From: Cinnamomum chago | Lineage: Eukaryota > Streptophyta > Magnoliopsida > Laurales > Lauraceae | Assembly (NCBI GenBank): GCA_038049695.1 | Contig: CP142452.1 | Span: 49,062,501 to 49,126,500, forward strand | DNA length: 64,000 bases | Direction: 5' to 3' | Shown: piece by piece, positions 4,376 to 64,000 of the stretch | Numbering within the stretch: the stretch's first letter is position 1 | Layout of the letters: each line of letters opens with the position of its first letter | The notes under the pieces: model-generated | Seen by the model: only the letters and a program-made list of their open reading frames with translations | What the model was told of the DNA's origin: nothing | The model's database searches: none | Position numbers and translations under genes: made by a program

Positions 4376-4394
4376 CCAAATGGGTTCAAATTTT

Positions 4395-4851: not shown

Positions 4852-4870
4852 CCAAATGGGTTCAAATTTT

Positions 4871-6923: not shown

Positions 6924-7058
6924 TTTCTCGGTTGGCCAGTGAAGCTTGTCAATCAATTCTTGCGCAACAAAGTTTATTGCGTTGCTGCGATTAATAACCA
7001 GATTAGCTAGCTTGCCTTCACACCTTTCATGTGTTTGGAATTTTGTATGCTGTTTCCA

Positions 7059-7487: not shown

Positions 7488-7499
7488 ATGTGTTTCATA

Positions 7500-8585: not shown

Positions 8586-9065
8586 GCTCTGATACCAATT
8601 GAAGCAGCCTAGATCCACAAGCAGTGATGAAACGGGTGTAGACAATCCCTGCGAGAGAGTTTGCCATGGATTCCAGTGAGGACCAATTTCGCAAATGGGA
8701 ATTAGTTGAATTCCTCTTGAAACTCAATAACAATCTTCCATCGAAGATAAAAAGAAAACCAAACAAACCAACCAATCTTTATTATTGAATAATGATGAAC
8801 TACTCTCCTAATAGAGGGATTACATATTTATAGGAAGGGTTGGACATCCCCTTTCCTAATAGGACTTTGCTTTCCTAAACAATAAAGGAAACTAAACATA
8901 GTCATAATCCAAATAAATAAAACTCCTAATTTTAATGACTTCTAAATAAATAACAACTCTCTAAATAAGACTCTTAACTAATTAAAACTCTAACTAAATG
9001 AATGATCTATTGGGCTTGTGGACTGGGCCCAATTAGTTGGCAGACCATGGGTCTGGCCTGCATCA
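8586..9065 (-). repeat. 5' LTR and PBS of the gag-protease element
   Basis: The LTR is 8600-9065; the PBS complement of initiator-Met tRNA is 8586-8597, two bases inside the LTR. The right boundary is fixed by the AAAGC duplication at 9066-9070. Confidence 0.85.
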
Positions 9066-10140
9066 AAAGCTTAATGGAAAGTAACCTAACACAAAATTAA
9101 TACTATGATGGAAAACAATGAGAATGAATGAACTAGGGTTTCATCTACTCCCCTAACCTATCCTATGCATGTCCCTTATTATCCCTTCAAAAAATAGAAT
9201 TATTGGTGACATTTATCAACCTAGACCATGGCATATGTATTTAGATTATGATTCCCCTAAGCCTAATTCATGAGTGGCATACTACATGAATTGTTCATCA
9301 AGTTGTAATAAACTAAGCATGGCATATGTCCTAGTCAATACATGCATGATGCATAAAAACAATGGGAATGATAAATGCATGAGTCTAAGCATGGCATATA
9401 CCCAGATTATTCATGGTTCTAAACCCTAGATGCTTAACATCAAGATCAATCAAAATTAAGTTAGCTACTCTTAAATTTAATTGAACATGGCATGGTTGGC
9501 ATGGCATATACACAACTCATCAATTAAAAACATGGTTTAGAAACTCAACAAATAAAACTGAATTCTTAATTAAAGAATGCCAAAAGAGACTGCATAAATC
9601 TAGGCTAGGGTTTCTACTACACCTTAGCCGTAAAAGCTACTCATGTTTTTAATAAAAAATAACATAAAAAATAAAGTCATAAGAAGAACTCTGAAGATTG
9701 GAGGAGAAGAATTCGGCCAGCAGCTTGTTCCACTTTTTCCTCCATTCTTGGGCTCCACTTTGACTTGAATAAGACTTTCAAAATCTGAAATTCAGCTTTT
9801 GCAATGGATGTGGCACCCCCTTTGGGCGTGTAACACAGTTGGTTTTCTTCTTTTCCTTCTTTGTTTCACTTTCCTTCTTTGATTATGCTTTCTTGTTCTC
9901 CAATTCTTTCCTTCTAATTTGAATTTTAAATTGTCCAAAGAATTAGAAAGGAATCTTGAAATCTGAAACAGCTTGGATGGACCCACCATGACTCATTCTT
10001 TGGGATTCATGCCTACTTCATAAATTCTTCTCTTTTAGCTCCTTTTGACCTTTTCATAAAAATTAACACAGACTATGTAAAAACAAATAAAACAAACATG
10101 ACTAGCACAAGATAAACCAAATATTAGGGCTCAGATTGTA
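9066..10140. other. right flank of the nested insertion; no gene
   Basis: AT-rich sequence with a scattered CATGGCATAT motif (about six times between 9230 and 9520). It probably belongs to the same older repeat as 4871-5177. No coding frame is supported. Confidence 0.35.
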
Positions 10141-10344
10141 AACAATTAAGCAATTATCAATCTATCTGGGGTTGTTCCCACCAGGTTGTCGAATTTCTGG
10201 CAGCAGTTCAACAGTTGATTGGCAGATTTTTTAGCACAGATTCGGAGAACAGGGAATAGTTCATTAATCTCAGAAGCAGAATCCAAGATCATTTGGGTTA
10301 TAGATAGATCAGAGAGCCTAGGTTCTGATTTATGAGGCAACCTA

Positions 10345-10585
10345 AAAAGAAACAAGGGATTTGAAGAAGTTGCTGTGTTGGGTTAATGCTCCCAGCAAAC
10401 CTATTTACAGTGAAATCCTTGTACAATATTAGTAATGAGCTTATCTACACAAATACAATGAAGTTTTACTAACCACTTGAATCTAAGAAATTGTATGATA
10501 TATGGGAGACTATCAAATAAAGGTGATCCTCTAGTGATTATAGACTACACTGAGGACCATATGAAATTAAGTGTCTTCACACTCT
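10345..10585 (+). repeat. dispersed repeat, copy 2
   Basis: Partner of 1087-1335 in the same orientation. Nothing in it identifies a family. Confidence 0.6.
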
Positions 10586-15627: not shown

Positions 15628-15925
15628 TGTTAACGCAAGCCCATTATAATATAAGTTTGGCCCATCCATGACCCATCTGCAAAGCCCATTATGTTATAAA
15701 CTTGTATAGCAATACATACTAAAATAGGAGATTTGATTGATTGATACTAGTCAGACTTGTACAGCAATACATACTAAAATAGGAGATTTGATTGATTGTA
15801 ATTGTAGCCCAAATTGGGCATCTCTGATCTATAAATTACAATGGTGAATCCTTAAGGAGATCATCGAATACAATTCTATTCAGTCTTGTTTTATGAGTGA
15901 TATTTCTTCTAGCTTATTCGTTACA
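15628..15925 (+). repeat. 5' LTR of the copia element
   Basis: 298 bp. It contains an internal direct repeat of about 44 bp (15700-15743 and 15755-15798, both with CAATACATACTAAAATAGGA) which is also present in the 3' LTR, so it predates the insertion. CTATAAATTACAATGG at 15830-15845 is a plausible TATA region. Confidence 0.95.
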
Positions 15926-20753: not shown

Positions 20754-21051
20754 TGTTAACGCAAGCCCATTATAATATAAGTTTGGCCCATCCATGACCC
20801 ATCTGCAAAGCCCATTATGTTATAAACTTGTACAGCAATACATACTAAAATAGGAGATTTGATTGATTGATACTAGTCAGACTTGTACAGCAATACATAC
20901 TAAAATAGGAGATTTGATTGATTGTAATTGTAGCCCAAATTGGGCATCTCTGATCTATAAATTACAATGGTGAATCCTCAAGGAGATCATCGAATACAAT
21001 TCTATTCAGTCTTGTTTTATGAGTGATATTTCTTCTGGCTTATTCGTTACA
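20754..21051 (+). repeat. 3' LTR of the copia element
   Basis: 298 bp, about 99% identical to the 5' LTR and bounded by the ATGTA duplication. The purine tract immediately precedes it at 20745-20753. Confidence 0.95.
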
Positions 21052-45310: not shown

Positions 45311-46999
45311 TTTTTTTTTTCCAAAGGTAATTGTAGTAAGAAAGAGAAGAAAGAAAACAAATGCACAAAAGCCTCCAGAGAAGGAGAAAAGGAGGAATAG
45401 GCCACAAAAAACAGGGCCAGAGCAACAGCTAGCGATTAGGGATGGAAGAATTCACATGTATTCTCAAAAAATTGAAGAGGGAGCTGAGCTGCTGACTGCC
45501 AAAAGGTTTTGATATCTTCCTTAGTGAGAAGCAGAGATCATCGTGTAGATGAGCTAAGACTTGATTGAGGGTTAGGTGTTGGTTTTTAAAAATCGCAGCG
45601 TTCCTGGCTTTCCAGAGAGCATATAAAATGGACAGAAATATTGACGCCATGAAATTCTTTCCAGCTGTGCCGTTTCCTCTAGAAAGGGATTTCCAAATTG
45701 AGGAGGTAGAACAGGAGGAGGGTTGCTGGGCGCAAGAAGATTGGAGCAACCAATTCCAAAGGGATTGAGCTATAGTGCAGGAGAAGAAGAGGTGGCTGAC
45801 AGAGTCTTCGCCATTGCAGCAAAGGCTGCATCTAGAAGCTAAGGAGAAGCCAAGGTGCTGTAGATGAGATTCAATGGGGGGTTCTATTGAGCATCAGACG
45901 CCATCCAAAGCAGCTGACTCTGGGGAGGGAGATACCGTACTAAATGAGGGCTGGCCACTGGAGGATGTTGCCCTTCAATCTGATAGCATTCCAAACACCA
46001 TGCAGAGAGATCTGACCATCAGGTGCCTCCTTCTAGAAGAGGTGGTCTCTAGCAGATGAACTGGTAGAGAGATAAGATGTAGCAGAAGTGAGCAGGTCTT
46101 GGTCTGCAATTGGCAAATTCGGAGGGATATGCCAAGAGCCTGAGTGGAAGAAGGATGCAAGTCGTTGGTCCAGAGGAAATTGCAGATTAGGAAAGACAGC
46201 AGAGAGGGGCTTGTCTCCACACCAAGTGTCATGCCATATGTTAATGTCCTTGCCATTTCCAAAAGCCCAGGCACTACCTTGGTGGATGAAGTGAGCGAGG
46301 CGGCAGATTCTCTTCCAGATACAGGATCCATAGATAGTGTTTGCAGGGTTTCAGATGTTGCTGTCCTTGAAGTAACGATTCTTGAACCATGTAGACTAGA
46401 TGGTGTTCATAGTGGTAGCCTGTCAGCCCAGCTTGATGAGGGAAGCATCATTCACTTCAGAGATCCTTCTAATGCTGAGGCCTCCTTCCATCTTTGGGAG
46501 GGTAACTTGAGACCAATTTACATAGTTGGTCTTAGAGGAGGGAGCGTTGCCTGACCAGAGAAAGTGTCTCATCAGATGCTCAATGTCTTTGCAAATGGAT
46601 ATTGGAAGGGGAAGGATGGAAGCTATGTGTATGGGAATACAAGAAAGGACATGCTTGATGAGTATATGATGACCTGTAAAGGAGAGGGTTTTGGTTTTCC
46701 AAGCAGACAACCTAGCATTAATGGAGTCCAGCAGAGGGAGTATGTGAATTCATTTCGGAGATCCAAAGACAATAGGGTAGCCCAAGTACTTGAGCTGAAC
46801 CTGGCTCTCCTGCAGTCCAAGGATGGAGTAGATCTTAGCCTTTCTTCTGATTCCACATTTGCCAATGAAGAGCTGACTCTTGAGGAGGTTAATGTGCTGG
46901 CGACATGATGATTGATATAATTCAAGTAGGTCTTGCATAGCGAGAACACCAGAAGTAGCTCCCTTCATTAGGATGATAATGTCATTAGCATATGTAAGG
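45311..46999 (-). mobile_element. L1-type LINE 3' half
   Basis: Minus-strand coding from the right: RT active-site region at 46999-46960 (LTYANDIIIL, where plant LINEs usually have F/YADD), SQVQLKYLGYPIVFGSPK near 46755-46800, then SAWKTKTLSFTGHHILIKHV, FLWSGN and LPKMEGGLSIRRIS (46710-46430), the zf-RVT region further left, and a C-terminal piece SLFNFLRIHVNSSIP near 45440. A poly-T run at 45311-45321 is the 3' tail. Several frameshifts and stops. The 5' half is missing because a long LTR begins at 47000. Confidence 0.85.
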
Positions 47000-49090
47000 T
47001 GTCACGCCCCCGAACCGAAACCTCGGGGGCGGGAATGGGATTTACATAAATAATTATATTTTTCTCCCAGGATCCGCGTGTGTGAAGACAACACATTCTG
47101 AATATTTTGCGGAAGCTTTCGTGGCATTGCAACACGGAGTCCGTGGCCATCGGATTCCGCGTCGCACTCAACCTTTAGCATATAGCTATCATATCAGGAA
47201 TCATATCAGACTGGAGTAAACCATCACAACAAAACACAGAGCTGACAGTAATAGGATATTACATTCCCACATATGTTCAAGTTACAATTATCAATGTACA
47301 TTAATTAAGAACCCCAAGAAAAAGGCTAATAAAAGCCATACAACAATAAGCTATAAACTACTACCCAAATGTGACGTAGCTCCGATGTCAAGCTCAATGT
47401 CTACATGACATAGCCGACAGAACAACCTGCAAAACATGGCTCCACAGGCAACTCAAGCACTCAACTCGGGACGAAGAAATCTGAACCTGAGTACCAAAAG
47501 TAGTGGGTCAGACACGACGGTCTGGCAGGTGGATGAAAAGATAACAAATATACTGAAGAATAAAACATAAGATAAATCATGATACTCGATCAAATGCTGC
47601 ATATAATTAAACGGGTGCAAAAGTTGGGAATCTCGGGGAAAACCTGTATTCATTTCAAGCATGGGTAAAACATGAATATCTAATAAAACATGTGTTCGTT
47701 TACATCATCTATAATCATAGATATTTGACAATCGGGTGTTCGTCTAAAACATGTATAAATATAGCGGTATGGCAAAACAACGTTCATTTGAAACTTAAGT
47801 AAAAACATAAGTATACAACAAACCAGGTATTCATAGCAGTCTAGCAAAACCAATGTCCATTTGAAACCTATGTAGAAATACGGATATTTAACAAATCGGG
47901 TGTTCATTTAAAACAGGTATAAACATAGGAATCTCACAAGCCAAATGTCATTTAAAACAAAGCACGGATATTTAACAATTCGGGTAATCATTTAAAACTT
48001 GTGTAATCACATAAATCTAGTAAAACCATCGATCGTGTGAAACATATGTAAAAGCATGGGTATTCGCCCAACCGGCATTCATTTAAAACATGTGCGGGTA
48101 CAAAGAACAGAAGGCAATATAATAATAACTGAATTTACATTGGAGAATATTAACACTTGTTTAAATAACAACTTTCATAAAGGAAACGAATCATTTATCG
48201 GAAAGCAAGTAAGCAATATAAAACATGTCGGGTATCCAAGGAATCGGGAACTGGTAAGATGGCAACCACACGAAGCTAAGTCCTCTATCACTAAAGCGAT
48301 AGAGCAATAATTAGGCCCTGATCTCAGTCACTCGAGGTGAGGAGAAACAGGGGATCTCATATAAATACATATACATATACTAGGCACTGATCTCAGTCAC
48401 TCGAGGTGAGGAGAAACAGTGGATCTCATGAATGCATATACATATACTATACATGACCACGGTAGCGAGCCGGGCATCGGGGACCACAGTAGCAATCTGC
48501 GGTATCGGGACAAGACCACGGTAATAACCGGGTAGCGGGATCCAAGCTGCAGCTGGCGGGACAAGAGGGGGATCTCCAAGTCGGTGGATCAGACCAACAG
48601 GGTTATCCAAGCTTAGTGGTGCCGACTCATAGGTCAAATACAATCGAGACACATGCAAGTAAACCAAGTACAAATACATAATCAAACGGGCAAGACGGGG
48701 GTGCTCAAGGGCACACTGACATATCATGTGGTGCAATGCACTTCGGGACAATAACTGTTACCAGAGTAACTTCAATGCTTTCGGGAAAACAAGTCTGTTG
48801 ACACCAAAAATGTCACTTTGCCTCTTTACACCAAAAGCTACATGGAGCCGCATCCTACCAAAAATAGGCAGGCGCCACTTCAAGCATCAGATCTTGTCAG
48901 AATCAAACAAAAACTGCAAGGTCATTCAAAACAACCAAAAGAGAGGTACACATGAAGTTTCGGGCCATTCCGACATCATTTGGCCTAGCTACACTTCTCC
49001 AACAGCTAAACAAGCGCTCCCGGCGGCGGCAGAATCGGAGACACCAAATCTTCGATCAGGGCCTATGGATGTTCTCAAAATATGTCCAAA

Positions 49091-49760
49091 GGGCTCCACG
49101 TCAAGTCTCAAGTCAAACCAGCAACGTTTGACCCATCATCAACTCTCCAACGGCTGAATCAAGCCTACCAGCGGCAGCGCACCCCGGGACCATGGCACCC
49201 AATTCGGAGCTTGTGGATCATCTCTAAATGACTCCAATAGGCTCCTCGTCGAATTTCAGGTCAATCGGACATCGTTTGACCAGAAGTCAAAGCTCGACAT
49301 CTCCCTTGCGGTGAAATCAAAGGCAAGCGTTTGCATGACTCCAAATGGTTTCAAGACTCAAACGAAAGCCTATGGTTGGTCTTATCTACTGATGAGGGAG
49401 TCACCCGTCGAATTTCAGGTCAATCGGACATCGTTTGACCAAAAGTCAAAGCTCGGCATTTCCCTCGCGGTGAAATCATAGGCAAGCATTTGCATGACTC
49501 CAAATGGCTTCAAAACTCAAACAAAAGCCTATGGTTGGTCTTATCTACTGATGAGGGAGTCACCCGTCAAATTTCAGGTCAATCGGACATCTTTTGACCA
49601 AAAGTCAAAACTCGGCATTTCCCTCGCGGTGAAATCAAAGGTAAGCGTTTGCATTACCCAAAATGGCTTCAAAACTCAAACGAAAGCCCATGGTTGGTCT
49701 TATTTAATGCTCAAGAAGCTTCACCTCAAATTTCAGGTCATTCCGACATCGTTTGATGCT
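49091..49760 (+). repeat. 159-bp tandem repeats inside the LTR
   Basis: AATTTCAGGTCAATCGGACA and variants recur at 49252, 49411, 49570 and 49729, exactly 159 bp apart, with more diverged copies to the left. 159 is a multiple of three, so one plus-strand frame stays open across copies; no protein is claimed. Confidence 0.85.
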
Positions 49761-50710
49761 GTTTCAGCTTCTGGCGGAAAATCAGCAGTTCTGCGTTCGG
49801 CTTTTCCCGGAAAATCAGAAACTTTGCAAACCAATTTGCAAGGATTCTCATCAGGGTTTTCAGAGGGAAATCAAGCCAAATAATGTGGGGAAATGTCAGA
49901 GAAAATAAGAAAAAAAAACGGAAGCAAAAAACGACGAGAAACGGCCAAAAAGGGGCCCCGGGAAGGGATTTTCCCCCCAGGGTCGCAGACCCCTGCGACC
50001 CTGGGCCATGGTCGCCTGCGACCCTGCGAGGTCCGGGGCGCCGATTTCGCCCCGGGACCCCCCATTTCGTCCGTTTTCGCGAGACGAGTTGTTCTGTCCC
50101 TGTGATTTTTCCAGATTCAGGCTTTTGAGGCTCCAAATTCACTGATATTCATCAAGATCACATTACTCCTTTCCAGAACTTCAAAAACTTCATTGATCGC
50201 CAGCCGAACAACCAAAAAAGTGCACTTTCTGCCCACCCGATCGTGAAATCAACTGGACAGATGCTGCCGGCCCGCTGGTATCAACCAATGTCTGAAACTA
50301 CATGATCATCTGATGTTGATTTACATAAGGATCTATCGATGATCATCGCAAAGGGAATTCCAAAAGACGCAACATGGCCCGCAACTCTTCAGCTACTAAG
50401 GCGGCCACTTAATGCTATCAATTGGCCCGTTTATGGCAAGTTAATGCGGTCATTAACCCATTATCTTGGACGGCCCAATCAGAAGCCTCTGTTCAGGAGT
50501 TACAAGTCCAAGCAATCATGGCATTCAAGCCATGAAACTCCTAACATAATGGAGATTAAAGGCGATTAAATGCCCATGACTCTCCTCCGGCCAATGAAAT
50601 CCAAGGGGCAGGAGTTACAAAGCAAGAGACAATTAAACTTGTAACTCCTCCCTTAATGAGCTTTATTACCATAAAGGCTCATAAATCACTCCTAAAGGCT
50701 ACCTAAAGGC

Positions 50711-50895
50711 CTATAAATAGGAGTCACCTCCAAAGTTTTCAGGATCAGAAAAATCGGATCAGAAAAAGCCCCGGAAGAAAAATCCAAAGCCAGAGAGAAA
50801 AGAAAGGAGGAAGAAAAATTCTCAGGAGGAAGAAAAATTCTCAGGATCAAGAAAAATTCTCAGGATCAATAAAAATTCTCAGGATCAAGAAAAAT
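50711..50895 (+). promoter_or_regulatory. LTR TATA box and leader microrepeats (recurs in every unit)
   Basis: CTATAAATAG at 50711, repeated at 52619, 54527, 56416, 58324 and 60213. It is followed about 100 bp later by the 19-bp AGGATCAAGAAAAATTCTC repeats in 4 or 5 copies. The TATA consensus and its place ahead of the R-U5 side suggest the LTR promoter. Transcription is not shown. Confidence 0.6.
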
Positions 50896-51703
50896 TCTCA
50901 GAAAATTGCCTGAAGATCTGAAACCTCTGAAAATCCAGACACTTTGCGAACGAAGAAACTCTGCTGCAGCAACCAACACTACAAGGTGATTGAAGTCCCT
51001 TGGGGGGCCACCCCCCCAAGGTTCCACCTCTCCTTCTATCCAACATGGCTAGACATGGCTCTTCAGCCCGTCTACTCGGTTTTTTATTGAACATAAGACC
51101 TTCTCTCGGTCTTTGTTCTATAAAAATCTGAGGATATAGCCAAGCCAAGCGAATCCAAAGCATCCGACGTTCTCATTTGCATGGATGATGGCGGAGTCCA
51201 TACATGACTCGCGACCGTCAATCTAAATGGGTCCCTCCCACAATCTCCTGAAAAGTTAGATTCTTCCTTTCTCGCTTTTCATTGTATTTTGTATTTTTTT
51301 TAAAGAGACAAAAAAACCACAACTCTTGTCTTTCATTATTGATGAGAATTGTAAATCGGCTATAAACGCCACAAATCAGCTATAAACGCCAAAAATCGGC
51401 TATAAATGCCAAAAAATCGCCTTTTACGGGAAAATAAAAAAACTGTCTCTTTTCTTAAATATATATGCAATGGAAACTTGAAAAGAAGTTGATTTCCATT
51501 TTTACTTGCGAAGATTGATCTCCGGATCATCACTTGAAATTCCAAGTAAAATAGAAAATCTGGCACACCCACCCAAACACCCAAAAGCATTGATGCACGC
51601 TTCGCCCTCCGGGGGCGAAAGGGTCGGACCAAACGGACTCCCACGTCCGCCGACGCCCGGTAGCGCCCGGGGCCTGGAGCGCGTTCCATCAAGTTGGCAC
51701 AAA

Positions 51704-51749
51704 CCTGATGAGAATCCTTGCAAATTGGTTTGCAAGGATTCTCATCAGG
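51704..51749. repeat. hairpin junction between array units
   Basis: A perfect inverted repeat: 21-bp arms (CCTGATGAGAATCC... and its complement) around a 4-base loop TTGG. It is identical at 53612, 55501, 57409 and 59298, always just after TGGCACAAA. At the array's left edge (49823-49856) only one arm is present and the centre reads TTTGCAAACCAATTTGCAA, with the loop inverted (CCAA). Confidence 0.95.
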
Positions 51750-54700
51750 TTTTTCAGAGGGAAATCAAGCCAAATAATGTGGAGAAATGTCAGAGAAAAT
51801 AAGCAAAAAAAACGGAAGCAAAAAACGACGAGAAACGGCCAAAAACGGGCCCCGGGAAGGGATTTCCCCCCCAGGGTCGCATACCCCTGCGACCCTGGGC
51901 CATGGTCGCCGGCGACCATGGGCCCGGCGACCCTGGGAGGTCCGGGGCGCCGATTTCGCCCCGGGACCCCTCTTTCGTCCGTTTTCGCGAGACGAGTTGT
52001 TCTGTCCCTGCGATTTTTCCAGATTCAGGCTTTTGAGGCTCCAAATTCACTGATATTCATCAAGATCACATTACTCCTTTCCAGAACTTCAAAAACTTCA
52101 TTGATCGCCAGCCGAACAACAAAAAAAGTGCACTTTCTGCCCACCCGATCGTGAAATCAACTGGACAGATGCTGCCGGCCCGCTGGTATCAACCAATGTC
52201 TGAAACTACATGATCATCTGATGTTGATTTACATAAGGATCCATCGATGATCATCGCAAAGGGAATTCCAAAAGACGCAACATGGCCCGCAACTCTTCAG
52301 CTACTAAGGCGGCCACTTAATGCTATCAATTGGCCCGTTTATGGCAAGTTAATGCGGTCATTAACCCATTATCTTGGACGGCCCAATCAGAAGCCTCTGT
52401 TCAGGAGTTACAAGTCCAAGCAATCATGGCATTCAAGCCATGAAACTCCTAACATAATGGAGATTAAAGGCGATTAAATGCCCATGACTCTCCTCCGGCC
52501 AATGAAATCCAAGGGGCAGGAGTTACAAAGCAAGAGACAATTAAACTTGTAACTCCTCCCTTAATGAGCTTTATTACCATAAAGGCTCATAAATCACTCC
52601 TAAAGGCTACCTAAAGGCCTATAAATAGGAGTCACCTCCAAAGTTTTCAGGATCAGAAAAATCGGATCAGAAAAAGCCCCGGAAGAAAAATCCAAAGCCA
52701 GAGAGAAAAGAAAGGAGGAAGAAAAATTCTCAGGAGGAAGAAAAATTCTCAGGATCAAGAAAAATTCTCAGGATCAAGAAAAATTCTCAGGATCAAGAAA
52801 AATTCTCAGAAAATTGCCTGAAGATCTGAAACCTCTGAAAATCCAGACACTTTGCGAACGAAGAAACTCTGCTGCAGCAACCAACACTACAAGGCGATTG
52901 AAGTCCCTTGGGGGGCCACCCCCCCAAGGTTCCACCTCTCCTTCTATCCAACATGGCTAGACATGGCTCTTCAGCCCGTCTACTCGGTTTTTTATTGAAC
53001 ATAAGACCTTCTCTCGGTCTTTGTTCTATAAAAATCTGAGGATATAGCCAAGCCAATCGAATCCAAAGCATCCGACGTTCTCATTTGCATGGATGATGGC
53101 GGAGTCCATACATGACTCTCGACCGTCAATCTAAACGGGTCCCTCCCACAATCTCCTGAAAAGTTAGATTCTTCCTTTCTCGCTTTTCATTGTATTTTGT
53201 ATTTTTTTTAAAGAGACAAAAAAACCACAACTCTTGTCTTTCATTATTGATGAGAATTGTAAATCGGCTATAAACGCCACAAATCGGCTATAAACGCCAA
53301 AAATCGGCTATAAATGCCAAAAAATCGCCTTTTACGGGAAAATAAAAAAACTGTCTCTTTTCTTAAATATATATGCAATGGAAACTTGAAAAGAAGTTGA
53401 TTTCCATTTTTACTTGCGAAGATTGATCTCCGGATCATCACTTGAAATTCCAAGTAAAATAGAAAATCTGGCACACCCACCCAAACACCCAAAAGCATTG
53501 ATGCACGCTTCGCCCTCCGGGGGCGAAAGGGTCGGACCAAACGGACTCCCACGTCCGCCGACGCCCGGTAGCGCCCGGGGCCTGGAGCGCGTTCCATCAA
53601 GTTGGCACAAACCTGATGAGAATCCTTGCAAATTGGTTTGCAAGGATTCTCATCAGGTTTTTCAGAGGGAAATCAAGCCAAATAATGTGGAGAAATGTCA
53701 GAGAAAATAAGCAAAAAAAACGGAAGCAAAAAACGACGAGAAACGGCCAAAAACGGGCCCCGGGAAGGGATTTCCCCCCCAGGGTCGCATACCCCTGCGA
53801 CCCTGGGCCATGGTCGCCGGCGACCATGGGCCCGGCGACCCTGGGAGGTCCGGGGCGCCGATTTCGCCCCGGGACCCCTCTTTCGTCCGTTTTCGCGAGA
53901 CGAGTTGTTCTGTCCCTGTGATTTTTCCAGATTCAGGCTTTTGAGGCTCCAAATTCACTGATATTCATCAAGATCACATTACTCCTTTCCAGAACTTCAA
54001 AAACTTCATTGATCGCCAGCCGAACAACAAAAAAAGTGCACTTTCTGCCCACCCGATCGTGAAATCAACTGGACAGATGCTGCCGGCCCGCTGGTATCAA
54101 CCAATGTCTGAAACTACATGATCATCTGATGTTGATTTACATAAGGATCCATCGATGATCATCGCAAAGGGAATTCCAAAAGACGCAACATGGCCCGCAA
54201 CTCTTCAGCTACTAAGGCGGCCACTTAATGCTATCAATTGGCCCGTTTATGGCAAGTTAATGCGGTCATTAACCCATTATCTTGGACGGCCCAATCAGAA
54301 GCCTCTGTTCAGGAGTTACAAGTCCAAGCAATCATGGCATTCAAGCCATGAAACTCCTAACATAATGGAGATTAAAGGCGATTAAATGCCCATGACTCTC
54401 CTCCGGCCAATGAAATCCAAGGGGCAGGAGTTACAAAGCAAGAGACAATTAAACTTGTAACTCCTCCCTTAATGAGCTTTATTACCATAAAGGCTCATAA
54501 ATCACTCCTAAAGGCTACCTAAAGGCCTATAAATAGGAGTCACCTCCAAAGTTTTCAGGATCAGAAAAATCGGATCAGAAAAAGCCCCGGAAGAAAAATC
54601 CATAGCCAGAGAGAAAAGAAAGGAGGAAGAAAAATTCTCAGGAGGAAGAAAAATTCTCAGGATCAAGAAAAATTCTCAGGATCAAGAAAAATTCTCAGAA

Positions 54701-57700
54701 AATTGCCTGAAGATCTGAAACCTCTGAAAATCCAGACACTTTGCGAACGAAGAAACTCTGCTGCAGCAACCAACACTACAAGGTGATTGAAGTCCCTTGG
54801 GGGGCCACCCCCCCAAGGTTCCACCTCTCCTTCTATCCAACATGGCTAGACATGGCTCTTCAGCCCGTCTACTCGGCTTTTTATTGAACATAAGACCTTC
54901 TCTCGGTCTTTGTTCTCTAAAAATCTGAGGATATAGCCAAGCCAAGCGAATCCAAAGCATCCGACGTTCTCATTTGCATGGATGATGGCGGAGTCCATAC
55001 ATGACTCGCGACCGTCAATCTAAACGGGTCCCTCCCACAATCTCCTGAAAAGTTAGATTCTTCCTTTCTCGCTTTTCATTGTGTTTTGTATTTTTTTTAT
55101 AGAGACAAAAAAACCACAACTCTTGTCTTTCATTATTGATGAGAATTGTAAATCGGCTATAAACGCCACAAATCGGCTATAAACGCCAAAAATCGGCTAT
55201 AAATGCCAAAAAATCGCCTTTTACGGGAAAATAAAAAAACTGTCTCTTTTCTTAAATATATATGCAATGGAAACTTGAAAAGAAGTTGATTTCCATTTTT
55301 ACTTGCGAAGATTGATCTCCGGATCATCACTTGAAATTCCAAGTAAAATAGAAAATCTGGCACACCCACCCAAACACCCAAAAGCATTGATGCACGCTTC
55401 GCCCTCCGGGGGCGAAAGGGTCGAACCAAACGGACTCCCACGTCCGCCGACGCCCGGTAGCGCCCGGGGCCTGGAGCGCGTTCCATCAAGTTGGCACAAA
55501 CCTGATGAGAATCCTTGCAAATTGGTTTGCAAGGATTCTCATCAGGTTTTTCAGAGGGAAATCAAGCCAAATAATGTGGAGAAATGTCAGAGAAAATAAG
55601 CAAAAAAAACGGAAGCAAAAAACGACGAGAAACGGCCAAAAACGGGCCCCGGGAAGGGATTTCCCCCCCAGGGTCGCATACCCCTGCGACCCTGGGCCAT
55701 GGTCGCCGGCGACCATGGGCCCGGCGACCCTGGGAGGTCCGGGGCGCCGATTTCGCCCCGGGACCCCTCTTTCGTCCGTTTTCGCGAGACGAGTTGTTCT
55801 GTCCCTGCGATTTTTCCAGATTCAGGCTTTTGAGGCTCCAAATTCACTGATATTCATCAAGATCACATTACTCCTTTCCAGAACTTCAAAAACTTCATTG
55901 ATCGCCAGCCGAACAACAAAAAAAGTGCACTTTCTGCCCACCCGATCGTGAAATCAACTGGACAGATGCTGCCGGCCCGCTGGTATCAACCAATGTCTGA
56001 AACTACATGATCATCTGATGTTGATTTACATAAGGATCCATCGATGATCATCGCAAAGGGAATTCCAAAAGACGCAACATGGCCCGCAACTCTTCAGCTA
56101 CTAAGGCGGCCACTTAATGCTATCAATTGGCCCGTTTATGGCAAGTTAATGCGGTCATTAACCCATTATCTTGGACGGCCCAATCAGAAGCCTCTGTTCA
56201 GGAGTTACAAGTCCAAGCAATCATGGCATTCAAGCCATGAAACTCCTAACATAATGGAGATTAAAGGCGATTAAATGCCCATGACTCTCCTCCGGCCAAT
56301 GAAATCCAAGGGGCAGGAGTTACAAAGCAAGAGACAATTAAACTTGTAACTCCTCCCTTAATGAGCTTTATTACCATAAAGGCTCATAAATCACTCCTAA
56401 AGGCTACCTAAAGGCCTATAAATAGGAGTCACCTCCAAAGTTTTCAGGATCAGAAAAATCGGATCAGAAAAAGCCCCGGAAGAAAAATCCAAAGCCAGAG
56501 AGAAAAGAAAGGAGGAAGAAAAATTCTCAGGAGGAAGAAAAATTCTCAGGATCAAGAAAAATTCTCAGGATCAAGAAAAATTCTCAGGATCAAGAAAAAT
56601 TCTCAGAAAATTGCCTGAAGATCTGAAACCTCTGAAAATCCAGACACTTTGCGAACGAAGAAACTCTGCTGCAGCAACCAACACTACAAGGCGATTGAAG
56701 TCCCTTGGGGGGCCACCCCCCCAAGGTTCCACCTCTCCTTCTATCCAACATGGCTAGACATGGCTCTTCAGCCCGTCTACTCGGTTTTTTATTGAACATA
56801 AGACCTTCTCTCGGTCTTTGTTCTATAAAAATCTGAGGATATAGCCAAGCCAATCGAATCCAAAGCATCCGACGTTCTCATTTGCATGGATGATGGCGGA
56901 GTCCATACATGACTCTCGACCGTCAATCTAAACGGGTCCCTCCCACAATCTCCTGAAAAGTTAGATTCTTCCTTTCTCGCTTTTCATTGTATTTTGTATT
57001 TTTTTTAAAGAGACAAAAAAACCACAACTCTTGTCTTTCATTATTGATGAGAATTGTAAATCGGCTATAAACGCCACAAATCGGCTATAAACGCCAAAAA
57101 TCGGCTATAAATGCCAAAAAATCGCCTTTTACGGGAAAATAAAAAAACTGTCTCTTTTCTTAAATATATATGCAATGGAAACTTGAAAAGAAGTTGATTT
57201 CCATTTTTACTTGCGAAGATTGATCTCCGGATCATCACTTGAAATTCCAAGTAAAATAGAAAATCTGGCACACCCACCCAAACACCCAAAAGCATTGATG
57301 CACGCTTCGCCCTCCGGGGGCGAAAGGGTCGGACCAAACGGACTCCCACGTCCGCCGACGCCCGGTAGCGCCCGGGGCCTGGAGCGCGTTCCATCAAGTT
57401 GGCACAAACCTGATGAGAATCCTTGCAAATTGGTTTGCAAGGATTCTCATCAGGTTTTTCAGAGGGAAATCAAGCCAAATAATGTGGAGAAATGTCAGAG
57501 AAAATAAGCAAAAAAAACGGAAGCAAAAAACGACGAGAAACGGCCAAAAACGGGCCCCGGGAAGGGATTTCCCCCCCAGGGTCGCATACCCCTGCGACCC
57601 TGGGCCATGGTCGCCGGCGACCATGGGCCCGGCGACCCTGGGAGGTCCGGGGCGCCGATTTCGCCCCGGGACCCCTCTTTCGTCCGTTTTCGCGAGACGA

Positions 57701-60700
57701 GTTGTTCTGTCCCTGTGATTTTTCCAGATTCAGGCTTTTGAGGCTCCAAATTCACTGATATTCATCAAGATCACATTACTCCTTTCCAGAACTTCAAAAA
57801 CTTCATTGATCGCCAGCCGAACAACAAAAAAAGTGCACTTTCTGCCCACCCGATCGTGAAATCAACTGGACAGATGCTGCCGGCCCGCTGGTATCAACCA
57901 ATGTCTGAAACTACATGATCATCTGATGTTGATTTACATAAGGATCCATCGATGATCATCGCAAAGGGAATTCCAAAAGACGCAACATGGCCCGCAACTC
58001 TTCAGCTACTAAGGCGGCCACTTAATGCTATCAATTGGCCCGTTTATGGCAAGTTAATGCGGTCATTAACCCATTATCTTGGACGGCCCAATCAGAAGCC
58101 TCTGTTCAGGAGTTACAAGTCCAAGCAATCATGGCATTCAAGCCATGAAACTCCTAACATAATGGAGATTAAAGGCGATTAAATGCCCATGACTCTCCTC
58201 CGGCCAATGAAATCCAAGGGGCAGGAGTTACAAAGCAAGAGACAATTAAACTTGTAACTCCTCCCTTAATGAGCTTTATTACCATAAAGGCTCATAAATC
58301 ACTCCTAAAGGCTACCTAAAGGCCTATAAATAGGAGTCACCTCCAAAGTTTTCAGGATCAGAAAAATCGGATCAGAAAAAGCCCCGGAAGAAAAATCCAT
58401 AGCCAGAGAGAAAAGAAAGGAGGAAGAAAAATTCTCAGGAGGAAGAAAAATTCTCAGGATCAAGAAAAATTCTCAGGATCAAGAAAAATTCTCAGAAAAT
58501 TGCCTGAAGATCTGAAACCTCTGAAAATCCAGACACTTTGCGAACGAAGAAACTCTGCTGCAGCAACCAACACTACAAGGTGATTGAAGTCCCTTGGGGG
58601 GCCACCCCCCCAAGGTTCCACCTCTCCTTCTATCCAACATGGCTAGACATGGCTCTTCAGCCCGTCTACTCGGCTTTTTATTGAACATAAGACCTTCTCT
58701 CGGTCTTTGTTCTCTAAAAATCTGAGGATATAGCCAAGCCAAGCGAATCCAAAGCATCCGACGTTCTCATTTGCATGGATGATGGCGGAGTCCATACATG
58801 ACTCGCGACCGTCAATCTAAACGGGTCCCTCCCACAATCTCCTGAAAAGTTAGATTCTTCCTTTCTCGCTTTTCATTGTGTTTTGTATTTTTTTTATAGA
58901 GACAAAAAAACCACAACTCTTGTCTTTCATTATTGATGAGAATTGTAAATCGGCTATAAACGCCACAAATCGGCTATAAACGCCAAAAATCGGCTATAAA
59001 TGCCAAAAAATCGCCTTTTACGGGAAAATAAAAAAACTGTCTCTTTTCTTAAATATATATGCAATGGAAACTTGAAAAGAAGTTGATTTCCATTTTTACT
59101 TGCGAAGATTGATCTCCGGATCATCACTTGAAATTCCAAGTAAAATAGAAAATCTGGCACACCCACCCAAACACCCAAAAGCATTGATGCACGCTTCGCC
59201 CTCCGGGGGCGAAAGGGTCGGACCAAACGGACTCCCACGTCCGCCGACGCCCGGTAGCGCCCGGGGCCTGGAGCGCGTTCCATCAAGTTGGCACAAACCT
59301 GATGAGAATCCTTGCAAATTGGTTTGCAAGGATTCTCATCAGGTTTTTCAGAGGGAAATCAAGCCAAATAATGTGGAGAAATGTCAGAGAAAATAAGCAA
59401 AAAAAACGGAAGCAAAAAACGACGAGAAACGGCCAAAAACGGGCCCCGGGAAGGGATTTCCCCCCCAGGGTCGCATACCCCTGCGACCCTGGGCCATGGT
59501 CGCCGGCGACCATGGGCCCGGCGACCCTGGGAGGTCCGGGGCGCCGATTTCGCCCCGGGACCCCTCTTTCGTCCGTTTTCGCGAGACGAGTTGTTCTGTC
59601 CCTGTGATTTTTCCAGATTCAGGCTTTTGAGGCTCCAAATTCACTGATATTCATCAAGATCACATTACTCCTTTCCAGAACTTCAAAAACTTCATTGATC
59701 GCCAGCCGAACAACAAAAAAAGTGCACTTTCTGCCCACCCGATCGTGAAATCAACTGGACAGATGCTGCCGGCCCGCTGGTATCAACCAATGTCTGAAAC
59801 TACATGATCATCTGATGTTGATTTACATAAGGATCCATCGATGATCATCGCAAAGGGAATTCCAAAAGACGCAACATGGCCCGCAACTCTTCAGCTACTA
59901 AGGCGGCCACTTAATGCTATCAATTGGCCCGTTTATGGCAAGTTAATGCGGTCATTAACCCATTATCTTGGACGGCCCAATCAGAAGCCTCTGTTCAGGA
60001 GTTACAAGTCCAAGCAATCATGGCATTCAAGCCATGAAACTCCTAACATAATGGAGATTAAAGGCGATTAAATGCCCATGACTCTCCTCCGGCCAATGAA
60101 ATCCAAGGGGCAGGAGTTACAAAGCAAGAGACAATTAAACTTGTAACTCCTCCCTTAATGAGCTTTATTACCATAAAGGCTCATAAATCACTCCTAAAGG
60201 CTACCTAAAGGCCTATAAATAGGAGTCACCTCCAAAGTTTTCAGGATCAGAAAAATCGGATCAGAAAAAGCCCCGGAAGAAAAATCCATAGCCAGAGAGA
60301 AAAGAAAGGAGGAAGAAAAATTCTCAGGAGGAAGAAAAATTCTCAGGATCAAGAAAAATTCTCAGGATCAAGAAAAATTCTCAGAAAATTGCCTGAAGAT
60401 CTGAAACCTCTGAAAATCCAGACACTTTGCGAACGAAGAAACTCTGCTGCAGCAACCAACACTACAAGGTGATTGAAGTCCCTTGGGGGGCCACCCCCCC
60501 AAGGTTCCACCTCTCCTTCTATCCAACATGGCTAGACATGGCTCTTCAGCCCGTCTACTCGGCTTTTTATTGAACATAAGACCTTCTCTCGGTCTTTGTT
60601 CTCTAAAAATCTGAGGATATAGCCAAGCCAAGCGAATCCAAAGCATCCGACGTTCTCATTTGCATGGATGATGGCGGAGTCCATACATGACTCGCGACCG

Positions 60701-61174
60701 TCAATCTAAACGGGTCCCTCCCACAATCTCCTGAAAAGTTAGATTCTTCCTTTCTCGCTTTTCATTGTGTTTTGTATTTTTTTTATAGAGACAAAAAAAC
60801 CACAACTCTTGTCTTTCATTATTGATGAGAATTGTAAATCGGCTATAAACGCCACAAATCGGCTATAAACGCCAAAAATCGGCTATAAATGCCAAAAAAT
60901 CGCCTTTTACGGGAAAATAAAAAAACTGTCTCTTTTCTTAAATATATATGCAATGGAAACTTGAAAAGAAGTTGATTTCCATTTTTACTTGCGAAGATTG
61001 ATCTCCGGATCATCACTTGAAATTCCAAGTAAAATAGAAAATCTGGCACACCCACCCAAACACCCAAAAGCATTGATGCACGCTTCGCCCTCCGGGGGCG
61101 AAAGGGTCGGACCAAACGGACTCCCACGTCCGCCGACGCCCGGTAGCGCCCGGGGCCTGGAGCGCGTTCCATCA

Positions 61175-61195
61175 AGTTAGCACACCCGGTGGGAC
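61175..61195 (+). other. PBS-like sequence after the last LTR unit
   Basis: Three bases after the LTR end CA (61173-61174) comes a sequence ending GCACACCCGGTGGGAC (61180-61195), the form and position of a tRNA primer-binding site. The other five units share only its first seven bases (TGGCACA). Confidence 0.5.
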
Positions 61196-61950
61196 ATGAC
61201 TTGGGCAGCCAATCGACAGAGAAGGGTGATTCTTCATCTGGCCCATCTCTTCAATATGCGAAGAAGGTGGTGATGCGGGTTTTGAGCTCTTGGATTGAGA
61301 CCCTCCTTTCTGGACACTTGGTTGTTGCACGTAGCAAGATTCCGCATGTGAAGGAGATTCTCAAAGATGCTGAGGATGATATTGTTCTGGATGTTACGGA
61401 CGCCCGGGCGATCGTTGATAGGATCATTGCATTAGGCGACAGGTGGTTTGAGACCATCAGCTATCCTGATGACCAGTTCTTCCAAGAGATGTTCATGAAC
61501 CCTGCTGAGAAGGCTCAATCGGAATTGAAAGAGACTGCACAGGGCAGGAAGCAGCTGGTTCGGGAGAGGAACCGAGCGGAGTTAGACATCATCAGGCTGC
61601 AGCATGACCTTAGCATCCTTGATGGAGAGGTTGAGGAGGCAAGGAAGCATCTCGAACACTTAAAAGCCCAAGTCTCCAGTACGTGGACCGCCATAACAGA
61701 GGCTCGTGACAGGGAGAGTGCTTTGATTCACCAAGTTGTAGAGGCCGATCAGATTCTCAATAGGAAGGCTAGAGAGAATGAACGATGGCAGACTGCTCGG
61801 GATAATCTTCCTGGTGTAGCAGAAGGGATAGAGCCTTCTCCAGCTACTCATGGCAGATTCTTGAAGAAGCGTGCCTTGGAGACTCTGACGGATGAAGCCA
61901 AGAGTTTGCTTGAAGAGCTGAAAGCTTGGCTGGAGAGCAATTTTGGCTGA
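61189..61950 (+). CDS. coiled-coil ORF next to the LTR array; element-encoded, function unknown
   Basis: An open frame of about 250 residues; the true start is uncertain because the first codons overlap the PBS-like site and the first ATG lies at 61273 (MRVLSSWIETLL). The middle and C-terminal half is a coiled coil rich in Glu, Arg, Leu and Ala (NRAELDIIRLQHDLSILDGE, EEARKHLEHLKAQ, HQVVEADQILNRKARENERW), ending EELKAWLESNFG. Composition resembles the C-terminal tails of plant mobile domain proteins and the extra ORFs known in Tat/Ogre elements (ORF1 after the PBS, or the antisense ORF between integrase and the 3' LTR). It is opposite in strand to the integrase at 63490-64000, which favours the antisense ORF; its adjacency to a PBS-like site favours ORF1. 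No gag motif is seen. A host gene is unlikely. Confidence 0.5.
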   Translation: MGHDLGSQSTEKGDSSSGPSLQYAKKVVMRVLSSWIETLLSGHLVVARSKIPHVKEILKDAEDDIVLDVTDARAIVDRIIALGDRWFETISYPDDQFFQEMFMNPAEKAQSELKETAQGRKQLVRERNRAELDIIRLQHDLSILDGEVEEARKHLEHLKAQVSSTWTAITEARDRESALIHQVVEADQILNRKARENERWQTARDNLPGVAEGIEPSPATHGRFLKKRALETLTDEAKSLLEELKAWLESNFG

Positions 61951-62224
61951 GGCCCTGTTGTTTTTTTTTTTTTTTTTTTTTTTTTAACAGAAACTCTTTC
62001 TCTCTTTTTATATACCACATGTTTTTTTTTTTTGGTATACATTTTTGTAGTGCTTGTGAACACTTTTCTTTTCTTTTTTTTTTTTTTGGTACCACATGTA
62101 TTTTTTGGTACTTTTTTTTTTTTTTGTTTTCCCTACGCTCACTCAAATATTGTGATTAAAGTGATTGCTAAATGGGATGTGATCAAAAGTTTGTCATTTT
62201 GTGAGAAATCTTTTGACAAATGAT
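61951..62224. repeat. T-rich low-complexity stretch
   Basis: T runs near 61962-61985, 62023-62033, 62077-62088 and 62111-62125 with GGTAC(C/A)ACATGT between them. Non-coding. Confidence 0.7.
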
Positions 62225-62229
62225 TGTTT

Positions 62230-62712
62230 TGGCATGGGAGCCAGTTTTTGAGACATGTTTTGGCATGGGAGCCAGATTTTGCTTGCGGCATGAAAGCCAA
62301 TTTTTGGGTGGCATCTGTAGCCGGATTTGGGTTTATGGCATGAGAGCCAAAATTTTGGATGGCGTGGAAGCCGAAATTTTGAGGTGGCGTCGAAGCCGAT
62401 TTTGGTGGCGTGAAAGCCAAATTTTGGGATGGCATGAGAGCCAATTTTTTGAGATGGCATGAAAGCCGAATTTTGAGGTGGCATGAAAGCCGATTTTTTT
62501 TTGAGTGGCATGAAAACCGGTTTTGGTATGGCATGAGAGCCAATTTTTGTTTTTGGTGTAAGAACCAGATTTTGTTTTTGGCATGAAAGCCGGATTTTTT
62601 GAAAACTGAATTTTTTTTGGTTGGCATGGAAGCCGAATTTTGATTTTTGGCATGAAAGCCGGATTTTTGGCATGGAAGCCGGGTTTTTTGGCGTGAAAGC
62701 CAGGCTTTTGGT
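62230..62712. repeat. minisatellite of GGCATGRRAGCC units
   Basis: About 17 copies of GGCATGAAAGCCRRATTTT-like units, 20-35 bp apart, differing in spacer length. On the minus strand they read as repeating FHAxxK/SHAxxK peptides with no known function. Tat elements are known to have hypervariable, repeat-rich 3' untranslated regions, which fits its place left of the integrase. Confidence 0.85.
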
Positions 62713-62725
62713 TTTCAAAAACTGC

Positions 62726-63112
62726 AAGTATCGACTAAAAGTCGCCTCCCTGCTGAATGGTATTGCAAGTATCGATGGAATGTCGCCTCCTTGCTCATTC
62801 GGTTGCGAGTATCGATGGAATGTCGCCTCCCCGCGGATTTGGGTGCAAGTATCGACTAAGCGTCGCTTCCTTGCTTTTTTCTTCAAAAATTTTGTTTTGT
62901 GGGTATCGATGGAATGTCGCTTCCCCACGATTTTTGAATTTTGAGGTTTTTTCGAACCTTTGTTTTGTTTTTGTTTGTATTGAAATTTGGGTTGTGGATA
63001 TCAACTGGAACGTTGCGTCTCCACGATTTTGGGGTTTTGGAAGTATCGAATGGGGTTCGCATCCTTCCGATTTTGGGTTTTGCAAGTATCGACTGAACGT
63101 CGCTTCCCTGCG
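62726..63112. repeat. second minisatellite: GCAAGTATCGA...CTTGC units
   Basis: Eight ~30-bp units (near 62726, 62765, 62806, 62846, 62900, 62995, 63042 and 63083) with the core AAGTATCGACTGAACGTCGC. The better copies end in complementary GCAAG and CTTGC, so each could form a small hairpin. Confidence 0.8.
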
Positions 63113-63489
63113 GTTTTTGAAAAACCATTTTTTGTTTAAAGACACGAGGGTCGTAAATTTTGACTCAAAACCATTTTGGTGGTAAAAGTCGGGGTGGACT
63201 AGCGCTGAAATCCCTAGGTCCTGATTTTGTTTCAAACCATGAATTTTGGGTTCAAGGATCGAAAATTTTGGTCAAGTTTGGGAAGAGGCTTATAAACTTG
63301 GATTTTTGGAGTTGTTTTTTTTTTTTTTTGAACAATGAAACGATGAAAGAAACATTGTTTTGAGGGGTTTTTTTTTTTAGAAATTTCAACAAGAGGATGA
63401 AAATTCCAAAAGGACTGGGTTTGACGAGCAGATACCTAGGAATAGGCTTTGGCCGTGCAGGCGTCGCTCTGACCCGATGGAAGAAGCCT
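63113..63489. other. no gene; probable 3' untranslated region of the Tat element
   Basis: Between the integrase stop (minus strand) and the minisatellites. It contains two T runs. Nothing else is recognised. Confidence 0.4.
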
Positions 63490-64000
63490 TCAAGGGTAGT
63501 ACCGCTTTAAGAAGTTTCCATTGATGGGCAGCATACATCTGTCACCCTCCATGTTTAGAAGGGCGTATGCGCCGTTGGAGAAGACTTTGTCGATGACGAA
63601 AGGTCCCTCCCATTTTGGTTCAAATTTGCCTTTGGATTTGTGAGTAAAAACCATAGGTCTTTTTACTGTAAGAACCAAGTCTCCCTTTTTGTAGGCGCGT
63701 TGCCTGACCTTCTTGTCAAAAGATCCTGCCATGCGTGCTTGGTAGAGTTCGATGCTTTGTAGAGCTTCGAGCCGTCTCTCGTCGAGATTGTCCAGCTCAT
63801 TGAGTCGCAACTTTACATTGCTTTCTTGAGTCATGTCATTTTGTAGAGATACCCTCAGAGAAGGAATTTGTACCTCTAAGGGCACGACAGCTTCACATCC
63901 ATAGACCAAGGAGAATGGTGTGCTATGGGTTGGTCCTCGAACAGTAGTTCGATAGGCCCACAAGGCTTCAGGAAGCTTGTCGCCCCAGTCTCTTTTGTGA
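63490..64000 (-). pseudogene. Tat-lineage Ty3/gypsy integrase C-terminal region, runs off the window
   Basis: The minus-strand frame is open to the window edge. It shows the integrase core end (GDKLPEALWAYRTTVRGPTH, then STPFSLVYGCEAVVPLEV) and the C-terminal DNA-binding part (ERRLEALQSIELYQARMAG, KKGDLVLTVKRP, GKFEPKWEGPFVIDKVFSNG) and ends in GNFLKRYYP with no chromodomain. That pattern is characteristic of Tat/Ogre-type elements. The rest of pol lies to the right of the window. No break is visible in the visible part. Confidence 0.88.

What the first reader, a model, noticed from the sequence alone, without database searches (positions are those of the whole stretch)
47000..61174. A 14-kb expanded LTR: promoter-R-U5 module amplified six times
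The LTR starting at 47000 seems to end at 51691, but its last ~1.87 kb, including the TATA box and the LTR end, is repeated five more times before a PBS-like site appears. LTR retrotransposons with tandemly amplified LTR ends of this size are unusual, and the units are over 99% alike, so the expansion is recent. It could be the birth of a satellite from an LTR, or a way of stacking promoters.
Basis: partly seen in the sequence, partly recalled or inferred. Interest (0 to 1): 0.85.

Follow-up and report, generated by a model that had tools for sequence, protein, structure and literature searches.

The report
Scrambled retrotransposon insertion with six-fold LTR
A plant retrotransposon's end repeat carries six back-to-back copies of its promoter-bearing part, and it turns out to be the left end of a 54.5-kb scrambled copy that seems to have entered the chromosome in one step after reverse transcription went wrong, with the repeat array probably growing further afterwards.

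Summary
The repeat is real: six units (periods 1889 or 1908 bp), six identical TATA boxes, ending at 61174. But the LTR starts at 48796, not 47000; 46984-48795 belongs to another repeat that the element interrupted. Family LTRs are mostly 2.6-2.9 kb; this one is 12.4 kb. Beyond the window it proves to be the left end of a 54.5-kb block (C2:49111296-49165816) with LTR termini TGTTGA...CATCA and the same 5-bp duplication, AAGTC, on both sides. Three of three related copies of the interrupted repeat run across the empty site. Inside, five segments of one Tat-clade Ty3/gypsy family lie in mixed orientation (+ - - + -). Four of eight junction types break 10-21 nt past an LTR end, inside the primer-binding site, where plus-strand strong-stop DNA ends; three others break inside the LTR's 3' end. 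Best explanation: aberrant reverse transcription with several wrong strand transfers, integrated once, which seeded an LTR duplication. The array (u1-A-B-A-B-B) then probably grew by unequal exchange, since units 2=4 and 5=6 are identical while other parts of the block carry private changes. The unit junction was found only here, so no dispersed satellite. Promoter stacking is untested. Array copy number needs long reads.

The parts
46984..48795 (.). Flanking repeat of another family (interrupted); NOT part of this LTR. Its other half continues at offset 103322
   Evidence: Copies without this LTR in L014, L025, L029
48791..48795 (.). Left target-site duplication AAGTC (right copy at offset 103317-103321, outside the window)
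48796..51691 (+). Complete LTR (2896 bp), TGTTGACACC...GTTCCATCA; its 3' part 49835-51691 is unit 1
   Evidence: LTR start/end shared with copies elsewhere
49247..49756 (+). 159-bp x 3.2 tandem repeat inside the single-copy part of the LTR
51692..51728 (+). Unit junction: 10 nt of the PBS (AGTTGGCACA) followed by 27-28 nt that are a snap-back inverted copy of LTR bases; same junction starts at 53600, 55489, 57397 and 59286
51729..53599 (+). Unit 2, type A
53637..55488 (+). Unit 3, type B (one 19-bp repeat copy fewer than A), one private change
55526..57396 (+). Unit 4, type A, 0 of 1871 differences from unit 2
57434..59285 (+). Unit 5, type B
59323..61174 (+). Unit 6, type B, 0 of 1852 differences from unit 5
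61175..61195 (+). PBS AGTTAGCACACCCGGTGGGAC, fused at CCG(G/A)TGGGAC to the internal region in inverted orientation (junction J2)
   Evidence: 1 hit in the genome at up to 2 mismatches
61186..64000 (-). Internal region, inverted relative to the LTR: antisense-ORF region (ORF 61189-61950 on +), 3' repeats, end of the integrase ORF (63490-63999 on -); runs on to offset 70590
   Evidence: integrase named from the longer copy in L011

Best explanation
One aberrant cDNA of a Tat-clade Ty3/gypsy retrotransposon, about 52 kb long without a later 2.2-kb insertion and copied from more than one family template, was integrated once into another repeat. During its synthesis the two obligatory strand transfers went astray. 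The 3' end of plus-strand strong-stop DNA, which lies in the PBS, primed at wrong places (LTR hairpin, inverted internal site, deletion partner, another U5). Nascent minus strands jumped out of U5 early. One such event duplicated the LTR 3' part behind a 10-nt PBS remnant and a snap-back hairpin. After integration the duplicate grew by unequal exchange or conversion from about three distinct units (u1, A, B) to u1-A-B-A-B-B. Shown: the anatomy, the termini and TSD, the empty site, the junction positions, unit identities and that the segments are not copies of one template. Inferred: the enzymatic cause, the order of events, and that the expansion followed the insertion.
For: Single insertion: AAGTC on both sides, LTR termini at both ends, and the flanks joined to an empty site align without a break in 3 of 3 copies of the interrupted repeat tested. 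No N in the window or in the loci of the block. Segments, in offset coordinates, lie + - - + -. PBS breakpoints: unit junction after 10 nt, J2 21 nt, J3 12 nt, J5 13 nt past an LTR end; a rough uniform-breakpoint model, made after seeing the data, gives P about 2e-9 for 4 of 8 junctions and about 2e-7 for 4 of 20. J2 sits on a 10-nt match between PBS and an internal inverted site, with the PBS base at the one mismatch. Templated filler at J4 (43 of 60 nt match the element elsewhere). Different templates: segment 3 holds a 1.9-kb block found in L023 (97.9%) and absent from segments 4, 5 and L017; the middle LTR (12-15 differences in 726 bp) is no closer to the array than outside copies such as L022 (10-13) or L043 (12-15) are. 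Later expansion: 0/1871, 0/1852 and 1/1852 differences within unit types, against 0.24-0.88% private changes in nine internal stretches of the block and 0.77% in the middle LTR; under those rates 0 differences has P about 1e-4 or less. Another, solo-LTR-like insertion with TSD GATGA has since entered at offset 65735-67954.
Against: The same ends would remain if a normal resident element had been rearranged later by microhomology-driven repair, since only 42 nt of the right LTR are left. Seeing the same complex junction five times means RT alone did not make each unit separately. Private changes could partly come from the templates: outside copies show 0-1.21% private changes in the same sets and the C>T excess is uneven, so the 'later expansion' argument is not clean. 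Each of three junctions searched (unit, J2, J6) was found only at this locus. Of the 13 LTR ends listed outside the block, none has such a junction. The primer tRNA was not identified. Reads were not available, so the array number and inner order rest on the assembly.
Confidence: 0.66

Rival explanations
1. A normal element inserted at AAGTC and was later rearranged in place by replication-based or end-joining repair (template switches to other family copies), including the LTR duplication and inversions.
For: The left LTR is complete and the last 42 nt of a right LTR remain in the right orientation beside the TSD; templated fillers and microhomology fit polymerase-theta or MMBIR repair.
Against: Repair gives no reason for 4 of 8 junctions to lie 10-21 nt past an LTR end, nor for the breaks inside the LTR's 3' end.
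Confidence: 0.22
2. Several independent nested insertions of the family, later trimmed.
For: Nesting is common in plants; the region holds several partial internals and several LTR pieces.
Against: One TSD pair brackets the block; the inner junctions read lie mostly in PBS/U5 and I saw no TSD at them. The one later insertion (offset 65735-67954) does have a TSD, so such marks are still readable.
Confidence: 0.06
3. Assembly artefact: units or arms duplicated or collapsed by the assembler.
For: Identical 1.9-kb units and inverted arms are hard to assemble; reads could not be checked.
Against: No N, two distinct unit types in a non-simple order, internal arms differing by roughly 0.5-3%, and a matched TSD.
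Confidence: 0.06
4. On the array only (a variant of the best explanation, so the odds overlap with it): all six units were made at reverse transcription by repeated switching between two co-packaged RNAs (A and B), in a very young insertion.
For: A/B alternation and identity within types; unit 1's left third differs from the other units at many sites, as if from another LTR type.
Against: Needs the same complex junction five times; private changes elsewhere in the block and a later solo-LTR-like insertion suggest an older block.
Confidence: 0.2

Closest known systems
Template-switching complex LTR-retrotransposon insertions (Sabot & Schulman 2007, PMC1950507; whole text read)
   Same: Large complex element flanked by one 5-bp TSD, explained by abnormal template switching and one integration
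   Different: Theirs are two same-orientation cores sharing three LTRs; here there are five segments of mixed orientation, PBS/U5 junctions, and an LTR array without cores
Tandem LTR-RT structures in rice and other plants (PMC11899658; abstract and two sections read)
   Same: TSD-flanked single insertions with repeated units, gypsy-rich, origin (RT or unequal recombination) left open
   Different: Their unit is LTR plus internal region; here the unit is a partial LTR plus 10 nt of PBS
Tat/Ogre 3'UTR tandem repeats and the satellites they seed (PMC7004042; passages and discussion read)
   Same: Tat-clade element; [quoted passage not shown]
   Different: Short 3'UTR repeats there, a 1.9-kb promoter-R-U5 unit here; no dispersed satellite found here
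LTR-derived kilobase repeats of Solanum verrucosum centromeres (PMC13232507; passages read)
   Same: Arrays of 1.7-4.1-kb units derived from LTR elements
   Different: Centromere arrays within 0.6-1.7-Mb regions there; six units here, centromere position not tested
Recombination between family members during transposition bursts (Onsen; PMC5668417, abstract read)
   Same: New insertions are mosaics of family members
   Different: Pairwise recombinants there, a scrambled oversized product here

Membership tests
Tat clade of Ty3/gypsy LTR retrotransposons | RT with RNase H, integrase downstream (gypsy order) | tested here: met
   RVT_1 and RT_RNaseH in L012, rve integrase further downstream in L011; best solved relative by E-value is 4ol8, RT/RNase H, then Ty3 7q5b
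Tat clade of Ty3/gypsy LTR retrotransposons | Additional RNase H next to RH (PMC10508981, start of abstract seen in the listing; that Tat elements carry it between RH and IN is recalled) | tested here: met
   RVT_3 (PF13456) E 1.9e-19 in L012:1-756:-, between RT-RH and IN
Retand lineage within Tat (PMC11963269, passages) | Long pol-3'LTR region with antisense ORF and, often, tandem repeats | tested here: met
   317-aa antisense ORFs in L011 and L015; TRF repeats at window 62257-63119
Retand lineage within Tat (PMC11963269, passages) | TRP28 domain in antisense ORFs (97% of clusters) | tested here: not met
   Not among the Pfam matches of 3 antisense ORFs tested: L011 and L015 none at E 0.01; window ORF only HAUS5, below its cut-off
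Retand lineage within Tat (PMC11963269, passages) | LTR 315-1194 bp in the survey | tested here: not met
   14 LTRs measured, 2566-3662 bp
Template-switching complex insertion | One TSD pair around the whole complex | tested here: met
   AAGTC both sides, empty site in 3 of 3 copies
Template-switching complex insertion | Outer LTRs highly similar, internal LTR, two complete cores | tested here: not met
   Right outer LTR is only 42 nt; cores partial and in mixed orientation
Tandem LTR-RT (alternating LTR and internal region) | Unit = LTR + internal region | tested here: not met
   Only 10 nt past the LTR end in each of five junctions
Satellite DNA | Array at several loci or long homogeneous arrays | tested here: not met
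   Junction 5 of 5 hits at this locus; six units

The most novel reading that the evidence does not exclude
Retrotransposon particles can make, and integrase can insert, partly palindromic multi-template cDNAs more than twice the element's estimated length (about 20 kb, from an internal region of at least 14.5 kb plus two LTRs), and the two obligatory strand-transfer points (U5 and PBS) are the places where they break. Such junctions then seed tandem arrays, so the fossils of failed strand transfers are a source of kilobase-unit satellites. A second array in the same family (C7:20.4975-20.5075 Mb, PBS-leader units joined about 44 nt inside U5) would be another case.
Probability: 0.4. Interest if true: 0.75.

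Novelty: new variant of a known kind. Interest (0 to 1): 0.6.

Why it matters
Complex and tandem LTR-element insertions are known, but whether they come from reverse transcription or from later recombination is left open. This locus keeps several junctions inside one TSD pair, and most lie at PBS or the LTR's 3' end, so the strand-transfer model becomes testable by sequence. It also shows a route from an LTR to a multi-promoter array.

Tried and rejected
Considered and dropped: (1) rDNA or another RNA gene array: no Rfam hit at gathering threshold in the window. (2) LTR start at 47000. (3) The 1.9-kb stretch at offset 72107-74035 as a later nested insertion: it is 97.9% identical to internal sequence of L023, so it is a template difference. 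(4) A genome-wide satellite of the unit. (5) Head-to-head U5 ends like J5 elsewhere: exact patterns gave 1 hit (J5 itself) and 0 hits, but (40 of 1450 candidates scored) lists oppositely oriented U5 ends at C3:48725124/48725203 and C3:48747572/48747651, which I could not read. (6) Identifying the primer tRNA: not attempted with a tool. (7) Dating in years: left out, because I had only a recalled rate.

Errors of mine, mended where possible: third block, the row named s2 is a second copy of L021 by a script mistake, so the zero private changes of L021 and s2 there mean nothing. In one search the L017 LTR start was read at a guessed coordinate. In one search the empty-site join was 2 nt off; one search repeats it correctly. 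The nested-insertion ends used were 1-2 nt off; one search gives 65735 and 67954. The notes hold early values (the 1.9-kb block as nested, 45 nt for the C7 junction) that this report replaces. The P value treats junctions as independent and was computed after seeing them.
Full report
Setting. The window is C2:49062501-49126500 of a 1.06-Gb genome in 14 contigs that is held without a name. It looks like a plant genome from its retrotransposons; the species was not identified. Below, 'offset' coordinates continue the window numbering past 64000 (offset n = C2:49062500+n).

The array. BLAST of the window against itself shows 49814-61184 matching itself at shifts of one to five units. LTR ends lie at 51691, 53599, 55488, 57396, 59285 and 61174, and the TATA-box 16-mer occurs six times. 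Two unit types exist. A (units 2 and 4, 0 of 1871 differences) and B (units 5 and 6, 0 of 1852; unit 3 has one change) differ by 9-10 substitutions and one 19-bp repeat copy. Unit 1 differs from all of them by 18-20 substitutions and 2-3 indels, mostly in its left third. The order is u1-A-B-A-B-B. All five junctions read the same: LTR end, AGTTGGCACA, then 27-28 nt that are the reverse complement of LTR bases near 49831-49858, forming a 23-24-nt snap-back hairpin with the following unit start. At up to 2 mismatches a 24-nt junction pattern has 5 hits in the genome, all here, against 311 canonical LTR-PBS junctions (153+158).

The LTR. Copies elsewhere show the family LTR to run from the equivalent of 48796 to 51691: 15 of 16 LTR starts listed show it (14 outside this block; the exception, L017, was read at a guessed place). 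Of 14 LTR ends listed there besides those of the window, 7 are followed by the PBS AGTTGGCACACC(C/T)GGTGGGACCC (GG for AG at its start in L028), 6 by flanking DNA, and 1 (L011, inside the same block) by an aberrant junction. Four copies have matching TSDs: CACTT (L016/L017), CATAT (L018/L019), CATTT (L024/L025) and ACCAA (L020/L021). Of 14 single LTRs measured, 12 are 2566-2946 bp and two, in L015 and L013, are 3304 and 3662 bp with extra internal repeats. So 46984-48795 is not LTR; it is part of another repeat present without this LTR in L014, L025 and L029.

The block. After unit 6 the PBS AGTTAGCACACCCGGTGGGAC runs into internal sequence in inverted orientation. The eight other places printed (five outside the block) read CTCTTCCGATGGGACATGAC there, so the fusion lies on a 10-nt match with one mismatch, where the window keeps the PBS base; the fusion has 1 hit in the genome. 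Downstream I read four 10-kb pieces and then two more. At offset 103316 an LTR end CATCA is followed by AAGTC and by the other half of the interrupted repeat. The left AAGTC is at 48791-48795. Joining the two flanks gives an empty site that aligns through the join in L014 (88.6%), L025 (81.7%) and L029 (80.3%), 3 of 3 tested. The block is 54,521 bp, about 52.3 kb without the later insertion named below.

Inner map. i = bases past the LTR end in the internal region; the reference is the right-hand copy. (+) LTR and array 48796-61174. J2. (-) i 12924 to 5746, offset 61186-70590, with a later 2.2-kb solo-LTR-like insertion at 65735-67954, TSD GATGA. J3, in element sense: LTR end plus AGTTGGCACACC, about 30 nt of filler, then i 5746. 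(-) LTR last 301 nt, then (J3b) i 14472 to 9096, offset 70635-78475, including a 1.9-kb block shared with L023 but absent from segments 4 and 5 and L017. J4: inversion with about 78 nt of filler, 43 of 60 nt searched matching the element near i 8010-8053. (+) i 8605 to the 3' end and a full LTR, offset 78554-88593. J5: AGTTGGCACACCC, filler, inverted LTR end of 80 nt, then (J5b) a T-rich stretch. (-) i 14470 to 1, offset 88784-103252. J6: 24 nt of the LTR end inverted, then 42 nt of it forward, then the TSD.

Mechanism. Eight distinct new junctions can be named (unit, J2, J3, J3b, J4, J5, J5b, J6). Four have one side 10-21 nt past an LTR end. If breaks were uniform on 17.4 kb, P is about 2e-9 (about 2e-7 if 20 junctions were the base); this was computed after the fact. 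In LTR-element replication (established knowledge, recalled) plus-strand strong-stop DNA ends in the PBS and minus-strand strong-stop DNA begins in U5; J3b, J5b and J6 leave the LTR's 3' end at 301, 80 and 24-42 nt. Where R ends and U5 begins was not mapped. Both obligatory transfers therefore appear to have gone wrong. The alternative, repair-driven rearrangement of a normal resident element, also leaves these ends and explains fillers, but not the PBS preference; I give it about 0.22.

Templates and timing. Private substitutions, counted where all other sequences in the set agree, were 0.24-0.88% in nine internal stretches of the block, 0.77% in the middle LTR, 0.39% in unit 1, 0.26% in A and 0.13% in B (one row invalid, see Tried and rejected). 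Outside copies in the same sets gave 0-1.21%, so the block is not older-looking than its family. In the set i 9253-10088, 11 of 14 private changes of the block were C>T; elsewhere the share was uneven (10 of 23 in segment 2c, 15 of 21 in segment 5b, 9 of 18 in the third set, 0 of 6 in units A and B). Zero differences between units 2 and 4 and between 5 and 6 is unlikely if all units were as old as those private changes suggest (P about 1e-4 or less). Against this, some private changes may have been in the templates already: in the last 726 bp of the LTR the middle LTR is as far from the array (12-15 differences) as several outside copies are, and segment 2c's other hits are only 97-98% identical (40 of 2546 candidates scored).

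Family. Pfam finds RT and RNase H and an aspartyl protease, an additional RNase H (RVT_3) and integrase in an order that fits the Tat clade; the best solved relatives include the Ty3 polyprotein. An antisense ORF lies between pol and the 3' LTR, as in Retand (PMC11963269, passages), but TRP28 was not found and the LTR is longer than the Retand range, so I file it as Tat, not as Retand.

Recurrence. A second array of the family lies at C7:20497501-20507500: three PBS-leader stretches in tandem (LTR-PBS junctions 2423 and 2478 bp apart), two joined about 44 nt inside the U5 end; its junction has 2 hits, both there.

Print. Ten paper searches were run. They found complex and tandem insertions and retroelement-derived satellites, but in what I read no LTR-only array inside a mixed-orientation single insertion; the library lacks most subscription papers, so this is weak evidence of novelty.

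Noticed in passing
L044 (C7:20497501-20507500): Second tandem array in the same family: three PBS-leader copies, two of them 99.3% alike, joined about 44 nt inside the U5 end; junction found only there.
   Followed up: partly
C3:48725023-48725302 and C3:48747482-48747752: Two pairs of oppositely oriented U5 ends about 79 nt apart, possibly another palindromic scrambled insertion.
   Followed up: no
L013:3293-6954: LTR of this copy has an internal duplication of about 1.07 kb (equivalent of 49443-50510); it is preceded by what looks like a PPT and followed by a PBS, so it may be the shared LTR of a tandem element.
   Followed up: no
15628-15925 and 20754-21051: Direct repeats of 298 bp, 99% identical, 5.1 kb apart: perhaps the LTR pair of a small young element.
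   Followed up: no
offset 65735-67954 (L009:1735-3954): 2.2-kb solo-LTR-like insertion TGTAAAG...CTAACA with TSD GATGA inside the scrambled block; relatives in L022, L029, L030, L042, L043.
   Followed up: partly
[quoted passage not shown]
   Followed up: no
L016/L017: Shorter copy lacking about 6.9 kb of pol (i 3581 to 10530) with near-identical LTRs (2 of 1666 differences in the part compared) and a TSD: perhaps a young non-autonomous subfamily.
   Followed up: no
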